Origin: Chryseobacterium caseinilyticum
GTDB lineage: Bacteria > Bacteroidota > Bacteroidia > Flavobacteriales > Weeksellaceae
DNA: 64,000 bases
Assembly: GCF_014837145.1 (NCBI RefSeq)
Contig: NZ_JACYFS010000006.1
Coordinates: 62,001 to 126,000, forward strand
Direction of reading: 5' to 3'
A model generated the notes under the pieces. The model was not told the origin of the DNA, searched no databases, and saw nothing but the letters and a program-made list of their open reading frames with translations. Numbering within the stretch: the stretch's first letter is position 1; the number at the start of each line of letters is the position of its first letter. Positions 27,496 to 48,525 of the stretch are shown piece by piece. Position numbers and translations under genes: made by a program.

Positions 27496-28467
27496 ATGAG
27501 TAAGCCGATCACGGAATTTATAGAAAAATATTATCTGCACTTCAATGCAGCAGCTTTGGTAGACGCATCTAAAGGGTACGTTGCCCACCTGAAAGAAGGT
27601 GGAAAAATGATGATTACTTTGGCTGGAGCAATGTCTACGGCTGAATTGGGAAAGATTTTAGCTGAAATGATCCGTCAGGATAAAGTTGATTTTATTTCCT
27701 GTACAGGAGCAAATCTTGAAGAAGATCTGATGAATTTGGTGGCGCATTCTCACTACGAAAGAGTTCCTCATTACAGAGATTTGACGGCTCAGGATGAGTG
27801 GGATCTTTTGGAAAGAGGCTTAAACAGAGTTACAGATACCTGTATTCCTGAAGAAGAAGCCTTCAGAAGATTGCAGAAGCACATCGTAGAAATCTGGAAA
27901 GATGCTGAAGCAAAAGGTGAGAGATATTTTCCACATGAATTTATGTACAAAATGATTCTGTCAGGAGTTTTGGAGCAGTATTACGAAATTCCGAGAGAAA
28001 ATTCATGGATGATCGCTGCGGCTGAGAAAAACCTGCCGATTGTTGTACCGGGATGGGAAGATTCTACCATGGGTAATATTTTCGCTTCTTACTGTATCAA
28101 AGGTGAACTGACGGCTACGACGATGAAATCCGGTATCGAATACATGACGTATTTGGCAGACTGGTACACAAAAAATTCAGCTGGAAAAGGTGTTGGTTTC
28201 TTCCAGATTGGTGGAGGTATTGCCGGTGATTTCCCGATTTGTGTAGTGCCGATGTTGTATCAGGATATGGAAATGCACGACATTCCGTTCTGGTCATATT
28301 TCTGCCAGATTTCAGATTCAACGACTTCTTACGGTTCATATTCTGGGGCAGTTCCGAACGAGAAAATTACATGGGGAAAACTGGATATCACCACACCGAA
28401 ATTTATCGTTGAAAGTGATGCTACGATCTGTGCTCCATTGATGTTCTCTTACATTTTGGAAAATTAA
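27496..28467 (+). CDS. Deoxyhypusine synthase family protein (polyamine enzyme)
   Basis: A protein of 323 residues with the NAD-dependent deoxyhypusine synthase fold. The segment A-G-A-M-S-T-A-E-L and the late A-V-P-N-E-K-I-T-W-G-K-L-D, with K295 at the position of the catalytic lysine of the eukaryotic enzyme, are conserved. Bacteria lack hypusinated eIF5A, so the natural substrate must differ. Some bacterial homologues have been reported to make homospermidine or related polyamines from spermidine or putrescine, and such genes are often labelled speY. No arginine decarboxylase or agmatinase gene is in the window. Family secure, reaction inferred. Confidence 0.88.
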   Translation: MSKPITEFIEKYYLHFNAAALVDASKGYVAHLKEGGKMMITLAGAMSTAELGKILAEMIRQDKVDFISCTGANLEEDLMNLVAHSHYERVPHYRDLTAQDEWDLLERGLNRVTDTCIPEEEAFRRLQKHIVEIWKDAEAKGERYFPHEFMYKMILSGVLEQYYEIPRENSWMIAAAEKNLPIVVPGWEDSTMGNIFASYCIKGELTATTMKSGIEYMTYLADWYTKNSAGKGVGFFQIGGGIAGDFPICVVPMLYQDMEMHDIPFWSYFCQISDSTTSYGSYSGAVPNEKITWGKLDITTPKFIVESDATICAPLMFSYILEN

Positions 28468-32056: not shown

Positions 32057-32170
32057 TTGGCTTATAGCGGATTACGATTTGCTTTTAACGTTATTTTTTT
32101 TAAATATTAGGATTTCTGGACGTAATCTGTTGTCGATTTGAGCATTATGTTGTTTGTAATACGAGTTCCC

Positions 32171-32280
32171 TAGCCCCGATAGCAGCGACATCCTTTTTTG
32201 CTTTTTCGGAGATTTTCTACTGATAAAACAATTTCTAAAGCAAAAAAGATATAGCGGATAGCGGGAAATAGCTCCTGATC
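32171..32280. repeat. Dispersed element copy A (TAGCCCCGAT...AGCTCCTGA family)
   Basis: About 110 bp. It starts TAGCCCCGAT and ends TAGCTCCTGAT, with a perfect 12-bp inverted repeat CTTTTTTGCTTT/AAAGCAAAAAAG inside. Copy B is at 42819-42910. Confidence 0.85.
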
Positions 32281-34296: not shown

Positions 34297-34690
34297 TTTT
34301 TTGGATTTTTAAATTTGATTATCAATTCTCAAAAGAAATACCATTGAACGGAAAGTGACAGATTGTCTTAATTGATTTAAAATTGATTAAGTCATCATGA
34401 ATGATTTACATTTATTGTTTTTCCATTTAATCAATCAAAATGTTGTTAGTGTACTGTGAATTATTTTTTTTATCACAGAATAGGGGGTAATTTTTATGAA
34501 ATCAGCTTTTTAATGTCAATTTTAATTGGCCTGCTGATATTTTTTGACTTTTTTTTCTGTCTTTGTTTCATGTTGAAAAAATGTTTATTAATCGGTGTTT
34601 TGGGTGATAATTGTTCATTTATTTATGAGAATTTAAGAAATTTAAGCAACTGTTTTTGTTATAGGATTAATTTTATCTTAAATATTGTGC
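34297..34690. other. Intergenic region upstream of the surface-protein locus
   Basis: About 390 bp, very AT-rich. A plus-strand frame at 34456-34740 is hydrophobic from T-rich sequence and overlaps the promoter of the next gene, so I do not call it. Confidence 0.45.
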
Positions 34691-34698
34691 TACTTTTG
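34691..34698 (+). promoter_or_regulatory. -7 promoter box of the surface-protein locus
   Basis: TACTTTTG, a perfect TAnnTTTG, upstream of the first of three exported-protein genes. Confidence 0.55.
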
Positions 34699-34744
34699 CA
34701 GAATAAAAACACAGTTGCAGAGGGTCAAGAAACATATTAACAAT

Positions 34745-35347
34745 GTGGTATCTTTACTGGATTTAATTTTAAAATCTGGATTTTGGCGTCGTGCATTTAC
34801 AACAGTATTTATTATTTTTTGTGCAAATTCATTTGCACAAGCACAAATTTATGTAGAAGGTGGTGCTACGATTGTAAACCGGGAGCAGATCTGCTCAAAC
34901 ATTAAAATTACTGAAAAGGGAGAGAATTCTTCTGCTGTTATTTCTGTAAACGGGGAAGGATATTTAGTCAGTTCAGGCGAATCTGTTGTTTTTAAGGTTG
35001 AGAAGAAGAATAATGCACAGGTTGTTATTAAGAAAAAAGTTTTAAAAACTGCTTTAGCTTTCAAAGAAAAACCATCAAACCGGAATCAAGTTCTTCCTCT
35101 GAAGAAAAGTACAGTTCATTACAAGCCAATTGATAATCCGGATCAGTTCACCGGGGTTAAACATACACATAAAACGCTTAATCTTCCCACGGAACATTCG
35201 TACAAAGTATTAGGAATTGCAGAGCATCAGTCGCTCTCAGTAAGAAACTTTTCCTTAGAAAAGACAAGGATTCTCACAGCGCAATTCTTTAATGCTCATA
35301 TATTTTCATCAGCATTTTACACACGCCCTCCACCTTTTAGAGTTTGA
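34745..35347 (+). CDS. Exported protein of unknown function, first gene of adhesin locus
   Basis: About 200 residues. The start is uncertain: no ATG lies in frame near the promoter; GTG at 34745 or TTG at 34715 would both precede the signal-peptide core A-F-T-T-V-F-I-I-F-C-A-N-S-F-A. The mature part starts A-Q-I-Y-V-E-G-G-A and ends in the proline-rich Y-T-R-P-P-P-F-R-V. I do not recognise a domain. It lies 34 bp upstream of the large surface-protein gene and is probably its partner in one transcript. Confidence 0.65.
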   Translation: MVSLLDLILKSGFWRRAFTTVFIIFCANSFAQAQIYVEGGATIVNREQICSNIKITEKGENSSAVISVNGEGYLVSSGESVVFKVEKKNNAQVVIKKKVLKTALAFKEKPSNRNQVLPLKKSTVHYKPIDNPDQFTGVKHTHKTLNLPTEHSYKVLGIAEHQSLSVRNFSLEKTRILTAQFFNAHIFSSAFYTRPPPFRV

Positions 35348-35381
35348 TTTTTTAATGCATTTCAAACTTTAAACTAAAAAT

Positions 35382-38300
35382 ATGATTTTAAAACAATTTT
35401 TTAAAGTGCAATTACTATTGGTTTTTGTACTCATATCGCAGTTTTTTTCTGCGTAGTGTCCGACAGGTATATCATTTCTTAGCACTCAAGCTAATGCCGT
35501 CACACACATCAATTCAAATAACTATAGAATAGGAAGTTCCAAACTTGGTATATCTTATTCTTATGCGGGTGCACCTTTTACTTATACCAGTGAGATTACC
35601 ACCAATCATCAGACAGCTCTCGGTATTTACACCGACCACAGTGTAAACGGAGGGATTTCCGATGCAAATCATTTAAAACAGAATTTAACTTTTTCGAATC
35701 CAATTTATAATTTAAATTTTGATATTAATGATGTTGATAATGGTGATGTCGTGAGGGTTTTTGCCTTTGATCAAAATGGTAGTCCTGTAACTTTTGGCTC
35801 ATCTAACTACACTCTCTATGCTTCTTCTGTAATTAGTTTTAACGGAGTAAACCAATTTTCTTCTCCAGCATCATCATCTACTAGTGCAAATGAATCAAGA
35901 GGAAGGGTTTCTATTAGATTTAATAATCAATATGTTTCAAGTGTTCGCATTGAATACTACGATATTGAAGATGGAGGAGCATATACAATAGCAAATATTG
36001 CCGGAGTTTCAATCTGTGCTCAAAATGATGCTCTGGGCAATGTATCGCAAGGTGGCTCGACAACAGCATCAGTTTTTGCAAATGATTTTTCTTCAACCGG
36101 AGTAGCTTCGTCTTCTGCCAATACAGATGTTTCTTTAACCAATCTCGGTGGTTTAACAGGAGCTACCATTAATGCAAATGGAACGATCAATATTCCTGCA
36201 AATGCTACACCGGGTTCCTATACTTTAACTTATAGAATATGTTCGCCTACTGGTCAAACCAGTTTTTGTACAACAGCAACAGCAAGCCTTACCGTACTGG
36301 CATGTCAGGCGGGCACTGCTGCTCCTTTCCTGATTGCTGGCGGATTTTATGATGCTACAAATTCGGCTTACAGAATTCCCTGCGGATCTACAACAGCCAA
36401 TTTAAGTACAATCTCATCAAATAATAAACCGACTCCTGCTACTGTTACTTTAACCTGGCACACGGGAACACCTGCTACTACTGCTAACAAAATTGCCTCA
36501 ACAATTGCATTAACAGGTACAACTAAATATTATGCTTCATTTTTCGACTCGGTAGCCAATTGCTATTCTCCTACTAAAGAGATTATGGTTTTTGCTCCTA
36601 TTTGTGGTAGAAATAATGATTTTACCAGCATATCGATTACGGCAGGTGTTGGAGGCACACTTCCTTCAATTTTTGCAAACGACAGCTATAATGGTCTTAT
36701 CATTACAGATATATCTACAATTACTGCAAAATATGACTATGAACTTTGGACTCCTTCCAATGCAATTATAAATAATAATGGAACTCTTACAATACCTGCC
36801 GATGTGCTTCCAGGAATTTATACCTATTATTATAAATTGGTTGATACCGACCCGGATATTGGTATATTAATAAATCAGGCAAGCAATATTGAGGTGAAAT
36901 TCAGAGTATCGCCAAATACTGATGGTGATCCTTATAATGATTACACCGATTGGGATGATGATAATGACGGTATTCTCGATGCAGTAGAAAGTCCACCATG
37001 TTTTTATTCAAGCACTGAGGCTTCAATTATTGAAAATGTAACTTCACCGTTTGAAGGAGCTATGGGAGATCCTTTAGTTGGAGAAACCATTTCTACATTG
37101 TTTAATGGAAATTCTTCGGATGTAAATCCATTTAATTTTACGGGGCAAACAATTACATCGGGAAGTCCTATTTTTACAATCTCATACCCAGCTATGATTC
37201 GTTTGACTTCATTAAGCGTCAATCAGGCAGCGAGTGGGATGGCACCTGCAAACAGATTCGGTAGATTATTTGGGTCGAATGACGGGGTGAATTTTACCGC
37301 AATTTCTGCAGCAACAGGTGTTGCTTTAAATTCGGCCACTGTTACGTTTGCAGTAACTTCTACAACATCTTACCGTTTTTACGAGATAAGATATGTAGGA
37401 ACCGTAGCAGCGGGTAACTTAACTGATGGAACGTTGGGAACTGCAAATATTCAGGAAATTACAGCAGTCTATAATTTATTGGCGTACGAGCCATCAGCAA
37501 ATCCAAAGCCTATAACGTGTACCTTCAGTACAGATTCTGATGGAGTACCTAATCATTTAGATGTAGATTCTGATGGTGATAACTGTTTTGATGCTATCGA
37601 AGGTGATGAAAACGTCACTGCAGGAAATGTTGATGGAAACGGAAGAATTACAGGTGGTGTAGATGCTAACGGTGTCCCTAATTTGGTTAATTTATTAGGA
37701 GCTGCTGATACTGGAGGCGATGTTGGACAGGGAATAGGCTTTTCTCAAATTTCTACAATTACAGAATGTTTAGATACAGATGGGGATAGTATTCCTGATG
37801 CTTGTGATCTTGATGATGATAATGACGGTATTCTTGATCTCAATGAGAATAGTTGTGCACTTACCGGCCAAACAATTAGAATAGGATATATTCCTAATGC
37901 AAGAGATTTGGATACTGACAATGGATATACTTTTGATGGTGCTTATATGAATGGCTCAGGTGCTCTGAAACTCACAAATGCTGCTAATTTTGGACCATCA
38001 GGAATTGTAAATACAACTTTTGTATTAGTGAATATGGGAACTGCTCCAATTACAAAGACGCTTATTAATTCATTAAATCTTAATGTAATATTTTTAGGTG
38101 GAATCAATGATCTTACAACCTCTTATCTTACAACAGCAGAATTTGATGCAATTAAAGACTGGTCTGATGATTCTCTTAAAAATATTGTAGTGGCAACTCA
38201 ATTTCAAACCATACCTTGGGGTGCTGGCATCACAGCAGCGAACCTGAATCCAAATGTACCAACTGCATTGGGAGGTCAAACTTCTATATTCAATGGACCT

Positions 38301-40763
38301 TTCGGTAATGTTAATTCATTTACACAGGGAGGATCTTTCCAGGCTCATTTCTCAAGTATCAATTCAGTATGCAGTATTTCTCCGCTTGCGGTTGATGGTA
38401 ATAACAGAGCGGTAATTTATGTAGATGGTGCTTACAACGATATCATGATTGCTGATGTTGATATTCTTACAACCATTGGAAGTGTAACTTCCGGGAGTGC
38501 TATAACATCAAATAACGACAGAGTTTTTGCTAATTTCTGGGCATTTGTGGCTCAGCAGTCAGCTTGTGCAGATAAAGATACTGATGGCGATACAATTCCT
38601 GATCGCTTAGATCTTGATGCAGATAATGACGGCTGTCCTGATGCTATTGAAGGAAGCTCTACAACTATTACACCTGCCAACTTAGTTAATTCTGCAATAC
38701 CGGGAGGAAATACCGGTGCAACAAGTGGGGCTTACAATTTGCCTGTAATTCAGAATTTAGGTAACACTGTTAACACGAGTGTGACATCAGAAAGCTATGG
38801 TGTACCAACAATTGCAGGAACTGGTCAGGCTATAGGAACTTCTCAAACGGCCAATCCGGTATTAAATGCAGGTACCGCAGGTTCAAATCAAAGCATTATT
38901 TCCGGAAGTTCGCCTGCTGCATTAACGCTTACAGGTAGCTCTGGAGTAATTCAATGGCAGGTTTCTACAGATAATGTGACATTTAATAATATCCCGAGTG
39001 CTACAGCAGCAACTTATGCACCAGGAACATTAACTGCAACAAGATATTACAGAGCCATAATTACCAGTGTTGGTGGCTGTACATCAACTTCTAATGTGGT
39101 GACAATTACAGTCAACGCTTTTGACTGTATAGGAAAAATCTACAGCTTAGCAGGAGCTACAGGAGAAATCAGAGCATTTACCGATCCTGCTACCTCAGGG
39201 GCTCTTGGAACCGTTGTAAACACAACACCTTATCCACAGACACCTGCAAGTTCGGCAAATGGTGCAAATGCGATGGGATACAGCAATCTCACCAAAAAAT
39301 TCTATTATGTTCAGATTCAGGCTACTGCCCCTGGAAATAACACTTTTGTAAGCTATGACCCCGCAACAAATTTGTATGAAACTTTAGCAGGAACAACGGG
39401 AATTATTTATAGAGGTACGGTGACGACTGATGGTGCAGGTTATTACGCTATCACAAATGGTAATATTTTAAAGTATTACAGCATTGCAAATAATACATGG
39501 ACGACCATAACCAGTACTTATGTAGATCAGAACGGAGTCAGTCTAAACTCACTTCTCGGCAGCTATGCCGGTGGAGATATTGCTATGGACGGTAACGGAG
39601 ATTTATGGATTTTGGCTGGGCAGGGAGCCAGCCCAACAGCTTATGTTTTCAGAGCTAAAAGTACGGTTCCAACCACCAGTATGGGGTCAACACCCTTGGT
39701 TTTAGAGCAAATCGTAAAACAGGACATTGGAAGCAGTCCTAACGGTATTGCTTTCAGTCCGACAGGACAACTGTATATTACCAATGTTACCACCTTATTC
39801 AGAATGAATGACGACTTTACTATTTCGGCTATTGGCACAATATCGCCTGCTGGAGGTGGTGGAGATTTAGCAAGTTGCGCATTTCCAGTTAATCCTTTTG
39901 CGGTTTCAGATTTTGGAGATGCACCAGATACTTATAAAACATTCCTTGCATCGGATGGACCAAGGCATACCGCTTCTCAATATGATGCGACAACCAATAC
40001 TTCGTCACTGATGATCGGAAGTACAGTTGATTTAGAAACTGACGGAATTCCGAACGTAAACGCAAACGGTGATGATTTGAGTAATGTCAATGATGAAAAC
40101 AGCATCTCAATAACAACATTGTTTATCAATTCGACTTCTTACACAACTGCTGTTCCTGTAGTCAATAATACTGGAGGTAACGCAACTCTTAGAGGCTGGA
40201 TAGATTTTAATAAAAACGGAATTTTTGATTCATCTGAATCTGCAACAGTCACTGTTCCTAACGGTGCTACAAGTGCTTCATTGACCTGGACGGGATTATC
40301 AGGATTAACGGCAGGAGATACTTATTACCGATTAAGAATTGCAAAAAATGCAGCTGATATCACATTGCCTACTGGTTCTGTTTTTGGAGGAGAAGTGGAG
40401 GATGGAAAGCTGACAATACAAACTGTCTGTTACGAAGATCCCACATTGGTAGCCGGAGCAACCTATCCTGTGAAGCATGGTATCACTTTACTTGGAAGAG
40501 CCGGCAAGATCAATGTATCAGCACCGGTTTCTGCAAGTGACTGGCCTATGGTCAGAAATTCAGCTTACACGGCGTTAGAATCAAAAACCAAAGGTTTCGT
40601 TGTGACCAGAAACAGCAGTCCTGAAACTACGATCACAGTCCCTGTTGTTGGAATGATGGTATTTGATACGGATGAAAATGCAGGGGCAGGATGTCTGAAA
40701 ATCTATACAGGGGCGGGAGCTGGTGAAGGCTGGAAATGTTTCAGTACACAGGGTTGTCCTTAA
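35382..40763 (+). pseudogene. Giant secreted GEVED-domain surface protein with in-frame amber codon
   Basis: From the ATG at 35382 the frame encodes a signal peptide (M-I-L-K-Q-F-F ... S-Q-F-F-S-A), then TAG at 35454-35456, then C-P-T-G and an uninterrupted 1768 codons to 40763. The amber codon stands where Gln (CAG) would give the common cleavage context S-A-Q-C-P. The open part contains three acidic calcium-binding segments of the thrombospondin type 3 kind (near 36920, 37775 and 38580), an Ig-like segment (near 38900-39110), a repeat-containing propeller-like region (39120-39890) and a GEVED domain (39900-40430). No T9SS sorting domain is at the C-terminus. Without the signal peptide the downstream part could not be exported. 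It is a pseudogene, a sequencing error, or a read-through gene. Confidence 0.8.
35454..35456 (+). other. In-frame amber codon
   Basis: TAG as codon 25 of the frame starting at 35382. A single C-to-T change from CAG would explain it. Frame check: 35382, 35454 and the downstream GTG at 35751 are separated by multiples of three. Confidence 0.92.
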
Positions 40764-40884: not shown

Positions 40885-41457
40885 ATGTATAAAACAGCAA
40901 TTATATTATCACTTACTATTTCCGCACTTGCTTTTTCGCAGGTGAGAATTGGGGCGACTAATTCAGTGGGAAATGTGACTAATACTTCCGTTTTACTGGA
41001 ATTCGGAACAGATAACAATAAGGGGATTATTCTTCCTTACGTAGAAACGGTGCCTACGGGTATCAATACAGCAAAAGGTGGAACTATTATTTTTGATGTT
41101 TCAGCAAATACGGAATATAAAATAAAAGTAAAGAACGAAAATGCAGGCTGGAAAGATCTGAGCGTTCAGTCAGGGTATTCATCTGCTGTTGAAGCGGTAG
41201 TGAAACCACCGCAAGCTTCACCTCTGGCAGATCAGTCTGGATCAAAAGTGGTGATTGGTGATGAGACTACCACCACCGATGGTGTTCTTGTTTTGGATTC
41301 TCCTACCAAAGCTATGGTTTTACCAGTCGTGTCAAATTTTACATCCATTCCAAATCCTTCACCGGGAAAGATGGCGTTTTTACAACATCCAACTGATTCT
41401 ACTAAACATCGTCTGATTGTTTTCAATGGTCAGAAATGGGCATTTTGGAAACCGTAA
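40885..41457 (+). CDS. Exported protein of unknown function, third gene of adhesin locus
   Basis: A protein of 190 residues with a signal peptide (cleavage after about F-S, S-A-L-A-F-S|Q). The mature part has two similar halves, each with a V-L-x-F/L-D/G segment followed by G-I-I-L-P or A-M-V-L-P and K-x-x-x-F/D-V, ending F-N-G-Q-K-W-A-F-W-K-P. It resembles the C-terminal part of the upstream giant protein, which also ends in M-M-V-F-D-T ... G-W-K-C-F. Probably cell-surface; function unknown. It lies 121 bp downstream and is followed by a terminator. Confidence 0.75.
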   Translation: MYKTAIILSLTISALAFSQVRIGATNSVGNVTNTSVLLEFGTDNNKGIILPYVETVPTGINTAKGGTIIFDVSANTEYKIKVKNENAGWKDLSVQSGYSSAVEAVVKPPQASPLADQSGSKVVIGDETTTTDGVLVLDSPTKAMVLPVVSNFTSIPNPSPGKMAFLQHPTDSTKHRLIVFNGQKWAFWKP

Positions 41458-42643: not shown

Positions 42644-42818
42644 CGGAATTTTAAGATTAAAAGCTAATATATTTTGTTTGTGAAAATTGTTTTTAACGTT
42701 AAAAAATGATAAAGTTTTATTCGTCAATAAAGATGTAAATTTTGATTGCAGAATTACTCAGTATGTAATGTCTTCGTTTGAATGGGTAATTTAGTGAAGA
42801 TGAAAATGCTTTTGTTTT

Positions 42819-42910
42819 TAGCCCCGATTGGCGCGGCATCCTTTTTCTGAAATGGCTTGCAAAAAAGCGCTGGCGAAAAAGATACAGCAGAAAGCGGGAT
42901 CAGCTCCTGA
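42819..42910. repeat. Dispersed element copy B (TAGCCCCGAT...AGCTCCTGA family)
   Basis: It shares with copy A the ends TAGCCCCGAT and AGCTCCTGA and the blocks CATCCTTTTT, AAAAAGATA and AGCGGGA. The middle differs. It lies just downstream of the oxygenase gene. Confidence 0.85.
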
Positions 42911-47766: not shown

Positions 47767-48525
47767 TCACCACTTTTCTGTCAAATATTTCCAGTACCTC
47801 CTCGGAACGTGCTGAAGATGCAGTTTTAAATTTTTCCTTTCCACAATATTGGTTTTGAAAAAATACCGCTGCCACAGCTTTTGATACTGGTTTTCTTCAT
47901 CATGAAACTTCTCCTGATACTTTTTTAAATCGATTTTCTCATCGGGATAAAAAAAATCGCAGGTTTCCAGATCGTATAGAAGACCGTAGTTTCTCCGCAA
48001 ATCGTAGATCATCCATTTCTGATCCTGATAACGGTCATTAAAATGTTTTCTGATCAAAGGAAGTACATTAAAATCCGGATCAATTTTGGCGAAAAAAACT
48101 TCATCCTGCATTTTTTCAAACCGAACGAAAGCCGTCATCCGATGTCGTTCGCGACTTACAGATTTACAGATTTTAGCGATCCTTAAAATATCAGGATCTG
48201 CATAATTCTGCAGAATATTTTCTTTCGGATATTGAATCGACTGTTTTACCGCGGACAGAATAATTTGCTCTAAATCCGGTTCTTCCGACAAAAAAACTTT
48301 TACAAGTTCATGAATCCCTGACTTCCCGATGTTTTCTTCTAATTTATTTAAAACTCGTTCTGATTTTGTTTCCTGAGTGATCACTTCATGAATTTCGGCA
48401 AAAATATTCTCCTGATGAAATCTTTCTCTGCTCACAATTTCCACCTCTTTATACTTATATTCAAAAACCTCGAATATTGCCGTGAAAAGTCCGTCGAAGC
48501 TGCCGTCGTAGAGGAGGGTGGTCAT
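47767..48525 (-). CDS. TIGR03915/DUF4130-like putative DNA repair protein
   Basis: A protein of 252 residues starting M-T-T-L-L-Y-D-G-S-F-D-G-L-F-T-A-I-F-E, the characteristic start of this family. It contains the R-E-R-H-R-M-T-A-F-V-R-F segment and ends H-V-P-R-R-Y-W-K-Y-L-T-E. The C-terminal half is DUF4130, distantly related to uracil-DNA-glycosylase-like partners. Members are normally adjacent to a TIGR03916 radical SAM protein, as at 49362 here, but a toxin-antitoxin pair now lies between. The chemistry is unknown; a DNA lesion or modified base is the suspected substrate. Confidence 0.88.
   Translation of the reverse strand: MTTLLYDGSFDGLFTAIFEVFEYKYKEVEIVSRERFHQENIFAEIHEVITQETKSERVLNKLEENIGKSGIHELVKVFLSEEPDLEQIILSAVKQSIQYPKENILQNYADPDILRIAKICKSVSRERHRMTAFVRFEKMQDEVFFAKIDPDFNVLPLIRKHFNDRYQDQKWMIYDLRRNYGLLYDLETCDFFYPDEKIDLKKYQEKFHDEENQYQKLWQRYFFKTNIVERKNLKLHLQHVPRRYWKYLTEKW

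What the first reader, a model, noticed from the sequence alone, without database searches (positions are those of the whole stretch)
35382..40763. Lone amber codon just after the signal peptide of a 5.4-kb secreted-protein gene
The frame from 35382 gives a good signal peptide, then TAG at codon 25, then about 1770 uninterrupted codons. The downstream part has no signal peptide and no ATG, GTG or TTG before 35751. A C-to-T change from CAG (Gln, the usual residue after a flavobacterial cleavage site) explains it. One stop in a gene this long implies a very recent loss, a sequence error, or deliberate suppression (phase-like on/off control or an amber suppressor).
Basis: partly seen in the sequence, partly recalled or inferred. 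Interest (0 to 1): 0.75.

Follow-up and report, generated by a model that had tools for sequence, protein, structure and literature searches.

The report
Surface-protein gene silenced at its leader
A Chryseobacterium strain carries a very long, otherwise intact surface-protein gene that is switched off by one stop codon at the end of its export signal, and related genes in a few relatives are broken in the same short stretch by different mutations, which hints at repeated shut-off of this kind of protein.

Summary
ATG 35382 opens a 24-codon signal peptide, TAG lies at 35454-35456, and 1768 codons follow without a stop. In 7 relatives that can be aligned there, this codon is Gln directly before Cys. 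No CTA tRNA was found and RF1 is full-length, so amber suppression is unlikely. The gene is best read as a recent natural null allele.

(1) The body is mosaic: the 94% DNA match to Chryseobacterium sp. Leaf394 stops at 35437, the matched part of the body is about 79% identical, and identity resumes at 40413. (2) Leader lesions recur. Of 9 known proteins that begin with this N-terminal domain, 4 have a broken leader and an open body. In a survey of 93 family genes it was 4 of 6 against 0 of 87; without the window and one gene added knowingly it is 2 of 4 (p 0.0015). The lesions differ in kind. Bodies show purifying selection (dN/dS 0.15).

Repeated loss of export of one adhesin-like subfamily fits best. 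The sample is small, and reversible phase variation is not shown.

The parts
34685..35347 (+). Small secreted-protein gene upstream (listed as 220 aa from TTG; ends ...RPPPFRV). An RPPP-bearing frame is visible before all 7 members compared at this place.
   Evidence: no Pfam family; 81% aa identity to Leaf394 and 42% to G065
35382..35453 (+). Signal peptide (24 codons) of the big gene
   Evidence: homologous leaders in relatives
35437..35437 (.). End of the 94%-identical upstream block shared with Leaf394: approximate left edge of the replaced body
35454..35456 (+). In-frame TAG where 7 relatives have Gln directly before Cys
35457..36041 (+). N-terminal domain that defines the subfamily (alignment A1); 43-45% identical to the syntenic Leaf394 and G065 proteins
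35457..40763 (+). Open body, 1768 codons plus stop
   Evidence: dN/dS 0.15
39110..40413 (+). Segment without a listed DNA match (over 60 bases) in Leaf394 at this locus
40188..40403 (+). GEVED domain (PF20009), residues 1578-1649 counted after the TAG
40422..40760 (+). C-terminal domain shared by many paralogues, ending ...WKCFSTQGCP; identity to Leaf394 resumes at about 40413
40885..41457 (+). 190-aa secreted-protein gene; its relatives follow members of the big-gene family

Best explanation
The gene encodes a large modular secreted protein, probably an adhesin, in a locus whose body is exchanged by recombination between conserved flanks. In this strain it is a recent natural null allele: a nonsense codon in the last leader position ends translation after 24 residues, and no start with a signal peptide lies downstream, so no full-length exported product is expected. 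It is one of several independent leader lesions in the same subfamily, so loss of export of this protein type is probably selected again and again (inferred; phage, immune or cost pressure are possible agents), with the body still intact because each loss is young or is undone by recombination or slippage. Shown: the TAG, the open body, Gln at the aligned place in relatives, the mosaic edges, other leader lesions, no CTA tRNA found. Inferred: selection, adhesin function, any reversal.
For: TAG and open body. Gln before Cys in 7 relatives. Same locus, between an HSP90-like gene and recA, in Leaf394 and G065: G065 intact, Leaf394 with its leader out of frame with its body. N-domain-first members with broken leader: 4 of 9 (window, Leaf394, G011, G063; intact G065, G121, L083, G207, G239). 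Survey: 4 of 6 against 0 of 87, p 5e-6; without the window 3 of 5, p 8e-5; without the window and the knowingly added G063 gene 2 of 4, p 0.0015. Body frameshifts 0 of 6 against 2 of 87. Body dN/dS 0.15. dS 0.05-0.29 in 8 neighbour genes against 0.98 for the whole body and 0.24-2.7 in its 200-residue windows.
Against: Few lesions, mostly draft genomes, and the window's own base could be an error. The lesions differ in kind, so there is no shared switch. Where the same domain lies further inside the protein, 3 of 4 leaders are intact (G252, and L175 and L204 in the survey), and the one broken case, G244, is a 73%-complete assembly; counting the domain anywhere the survey gives 4 of 8 against 0 of 85, and 2 of 6 without the window and the G063 gene (p 0.004). 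The branch to compare was chosen after the first cases were seen. No second strain of this species was available. dN/dS averages over the time when the gene was on and cannot show that the off state is temporary.
Confidence: 0.58

Rival explanations
1. Plain one-off pseudogene: the gene has just been lost in this strain, and the other leader lesions are separate losses without a common cause.
For: A single nonsense codon is an ordinary way to lose a gene, and nothing in the window's sequence shows a switch. The protein type is patchy and so dispensable: 17 of 173 genus genomes match the first 458 residues.
Against: Leader lesions are concentrated in one branch: 3 of 5 other N-domain-first genes of the survey against 0 of 87 (p 8e-5), or 2 of 4 without the knowingly added gene (p 0.0015), with open bodies.
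Confidence: 0.25
2. Contingency locus: export is switched off and on by leader mutations, some in short slip-prone runs, as in Helicobacter OipA.
For: By eye, three of the five known leader lesions look like small frame slips in or beside short runs (A8 in G011, near AAAAGGG in G063, a T-C run in G244). Bodies stay open.
Against: The window's lesion is a substitution and Leaf394's is a deletion, neither of which reverts fast. No long repeat. No on/off pair within a species was available.
Confidence: 0.15
3. Sequencing or assembly error at 35454.
For: Draft genome of 25 contigs; a single base separates the two readings.
Against: The other 1768 codons are clean, and leader lesions in other assemblies suggest a biological cause.
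Confidence: 0.08
4. Amber recoding: TAG is read as an amino acid by a suppressor tRNA.
For: TAG is uncommon as a stop (4 of 40 window genes) and the body is open.
Against: No CTA anticodon read among the 56 tRNA matches; the pattern found two tRNA-Arg(tct) genes and eight places without a tRNA. RF1 full-length. Relatives use Gln codons, or have frameshifts that no suppressor would pass.
Confidence: 0.02

Closest known systems
Helicobacter pylori OipA (leader-level on/off outer-membrane protein)
   Same: A surface protein is turned off by changes within the signal-peptide codons (PMC10564699, abstract and passages seen).
   Different: OipA switches through a CT-dinucleotide tract. Here the window's lesion is a point nonsense change and no long repeat is present.
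CshA-type fibrillar adhesins with a GEVED domain
   Same: GEVED domain (PF20009) in a very long, module-shuffled secreted protein (PMC10952558, passages seen).
   Different: No NR2 match is listed in the Pfam scan; the N-terminal domain got no Pfam family.
Recent bacterial pseudogenes of surface proteins (recalled)
   Same: One disabling mutation in an otherwise open gene.
   Different: Lesions cluster in the leader of one subfamily and the locus is mosaic.

Membership tests
Amber-suppressed or recoded gene | tRNA with CTA anticodon, or loss of RF1 | tested here: not met
   the Rfam search scored 150 of 380 first-look candidates, so a weak tRNA could be missed
Repeat-driven phase-variable gene (OipA type) | Hypermutable repeat in the leader whose length sets the frame | tested here: not met
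   Window leader: T6 and T7 runs only, and the lesion is a substitution. In the G011 member an A8 run lies at the frame break.
Repeat-driven phase-variable gene (OipA type) | On and off variants within one population | not testable with these tools
   One genome per species is held; no reads or strain series.
Pseudogene | Frame disabled so that no full-length product can be made | tested here: met
Pseudogene | Relaxed constraint or accumulating lesions | tested here: inconclusive
   No further lesion in 1768 codons and dN/dS 0.15, but both are also expected if the loss is very recent.
CshA-type fibrillar adhesin | NR2 ligand-binding domain upstream of GEVED | tested here: not met
   GEVED above cut-off, no NR2 listed up to E 0.1
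Type IX secretion substrate | Recognised C-terminal sorting domain | tested here: not met
   searches list none up to E 0.1; an unrecognised one is possible

The most novel reading that the evidence does not exclude
The N-domain subfamily is a contingency system without classic repeats: bodies are swapped as cassettes behind a conserved leader and small upstream gene, and display is turned off and on by any of several leader lesions, so that a silent but still selectable body is kept in store.
Probability: 0.16. Interest if true: 0.72.

Novelty: new variant of a known kind. Interest (0 to 1): 0.45.

Why it matters
If leader-restricted silencing is real, it points to a class of Chryseobacterium surface proteins under strong on/off selection, for example as phage receptors, and gives a simple marker (leader intact or broken) to follow in isolates. 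It also means that an automatic start call at an internal codon would hide the lesion.

Tried and rejected
Amber suppressor: Rfam tRNA search, ARAGORN on the window and on all 56 matches and a CTA-loop pattern; none found. One of the 56 was read only with a four-base anticodon (cggg). The Rfam search scored 150 of 380 first-look candidates.

Second copy of the 5' end as a donor in the same genome: besides itself only short weak matches, best E 0.01. Rejected.

Internal restart: first GTG at codon 124, first ATG at codon 402, no signal peptide after them by eye. Rejected as a source of exported protein.

Programmed frameshifting or readthrough as a common mechanism: short runs lie at three breaks, but not at those of the window and Leaf394. 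Rejected as a shared mechanism.

N-domain fold: low-confidence model (mean pLDDT 58); no PDB match at E up to 0.001. Not used as evidence.

Plasmid collection, 35000-38000: no match. Papers: searches pairing phase variation with Flavobacterium, Chryseobacterium or Bacteroidetes and signal peptide, frameshift, homopolymer, surface protein or phage, and GEVED, showed nothing in their listings that describes this locus; I saw listings only, except for the passages.

Survey caveats. The leader test is a home-made hydrophobicity rule. It flagged 7 of 93 genes: four N-domain genes, two that I judged by eye to have leaders (L262, L269), and one body frameshift (L246). One gene that passed (L200) is also a body frameshift. 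Genes that passed were not checked one by one beyond the printed leaders. Dropped before counting: 5 genes cut by the end of the stretch, 4 places with no big gene upstream, 1 stretch without a 190-aa match. The 93 come from all listed copies in five genomes (plus window, L081, L121) and 40 further stretches. The five genomes are the window's own and four chosen because they hold N-domain genes, and one of the 40 stretches (G063:C6, L274) was added knowing its broken leader; counts without it are given.

Full report
Observation. The frame from ATG 35382 reads a 24-residue signal peptide, TAG at 35454-35456, then 1768 codons to the stop at 40761-40763. The first in-frame GTG after the TAG is codon 124 and the first ATG is codon 402; neither is followed by a signal peptide by eye.

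What the gene is. The body carries a GEVED domain (PF20009, E 2.6e-11); thrombospondin type 3 and two other Pfam matches are below their cut-offs, and the two NCBIfam matches are far below theirs. GEVED was defined as the invariable downstream partner of the NR2 domain in fibrillar adhesins (PMC10952558, passages seen). The C-terminal domain recurs in many paralogues of the same genome and genus. Relatives of the 190-aa downstream gene are in 163 of 173 genus genomes and follow big genes of this family. A small secreted-protein gene ending in RPPP lies upstream, and an RPPP-bearing frame is visible before all 7 members compared there. A large modular surface protein is the likely product; this is inference.

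The genome. Its GTDB genus contains genomes that match named Chryseobacterium records: G130 is Chryseobacterium sp. Leaf394 (locus L081) and G011 is C. kimseyorum (L088), by 100% DNA identity.

The locus and its mosaic structure. In Leaf394 and G065 the same neighbours, an HSP90-like gene and recA, enclose a homologue. DNA identity to Leaf394 is 93.9% over the 8 kb up to 35437; no match is listed from there to 35980; it is 78.9% in 35980-39110; none is listed in 39110-40413; and it is 96.6% from 40413 to the end of the compared stretch at 48000 (matches over 60 bases). Eight neighbour genes have dS 0.05-0.29. The body has dS 0.98 overall, from 0.24 at its C-terminal end to 2.7 in the N-domain. 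The N-domain is 43-45% identical to those of Leaf394 and G065. So the body has been exchanged relative to its flanks, with the left edge within the leader, 17 bases before the TAG.

The leader in relatives. Gln (CAA or CAG) stands directly before Cys at the aligned place in G065, G121, L083, G011, G063, G207 and G239. Leaf394 lacks this stretch: its leader is in another frame than its body, apparently by a deletion at the junction. In G011 the leader start is out of frame, with an A8 run at the likely break; in G063 it is out of frame, with AAAAGGG near the likely break (the exact points are my reading). So 4 of 9 members that begin with the domain are broken (window, Leaf394, G011, G063) and 5 are intact (G065, G121, L083, G207, G239). 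In four further proteins the domain lies 340-480 residues inside: G244 has a frame break in the leader compared with its close relative G252, but it is a 73%-complete assembly; G252, L175 (G065) and L204 (G011) are intact. Weaker partial matches (E above 1e-12) were not examined.

Control. I took the big gene upstream of each 190-aa gene in five genomes and in 40 further stretches and tested for a leader: 93 distinct genes. Leader lesions: 4 of 6 domain-first members, 0 of 87 others (p 5e-6). Body frameshifts: 0 of 6 and 2 of 87. Without the window's gene it is 3 of 5 (p 8e-5); without the window and the G063 gene, which I added knowing its state, 2 of 4 (p 0.0015). Counting the domain anywhere: 4 of 8 against 0 of 85, and 2 of 6 without those two (p 0.004). 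If lesions fell uniformly, four in the first 30 codons would have a probability near 1e-7, and near 9e-6 without the window. These numbers argue against sequencing error and undirected decay as a full account, but the group was chosen after the first cases were seen and the sample is small.

Constraint. Body dN/dS is 0.151 for the window against Leaf394 (1325 codons) and 0.135 for G244 against G252 (706 codons). At 1% neutral divergence about 2 further stops would be expected in the window's body; none is present. The off state is therefore young.

Suppression. 56 tRNA matches gave no CTA anticodon. The pattern search found two tRNA-Arg(tct) genes and eight places without a tRNA. RF1 is full-length and above its family cut-off. 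TAG ends 4 of 40 window genes. Recoding is very unlikely.

Mechanism. I take the gene as a recent null allele in a locus of exchanged bodies. Why the leader is hit is not settled. Loss of export may be what is selected; recombination edges may fall there (window, Leaf394); or short runs in the leader may slip (G011, G063, G244). These can act together. A reversible switch as in OipA (PMC10564699, passages) is possible but not shown.

Noticed in passing
Own genome contig C12:15925-17084 (L124): An accessory tRNA array (His, Lys, Pro, Cys, Gln, then a 72-nt tRNA with anticodon TCA, which would read UGA) lies beside genes for two R2K ATP-grasp proteins and an RNase H-like protein. The Gln + last-tRNA stretch has matches in 159 of 173 genus genomes, many to one of the two tRNAs only; in the 11 other loci scanned the last tRNA has the ordinary Trp anticodon CCA. 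A possible opal suppressor, or an array no longer used for ordinary decoding.
   Followed up: partly
Locus L235 (G180:C1): A family member whose leader begins like the window's (MILKQFF) but whose body lacks the N-domain: the 5' end may be shared between different bodies.
   Followed up: no
L246 (G001:C48) and L200 (G011:C45): Two paralogues of the big gene with frameshifts inside the body.
   Followed up: partly
window 32168-32272 and 42816-42905: Two Flavo-1 RNA matches (RF01705) above the gathering score, on either side of the locus.
   Followed up: no
window 27496-28467: A gene matching deoxyhypusine synthase (PF01916), 100% identical in protein to Leaf394.
   Followed up: no
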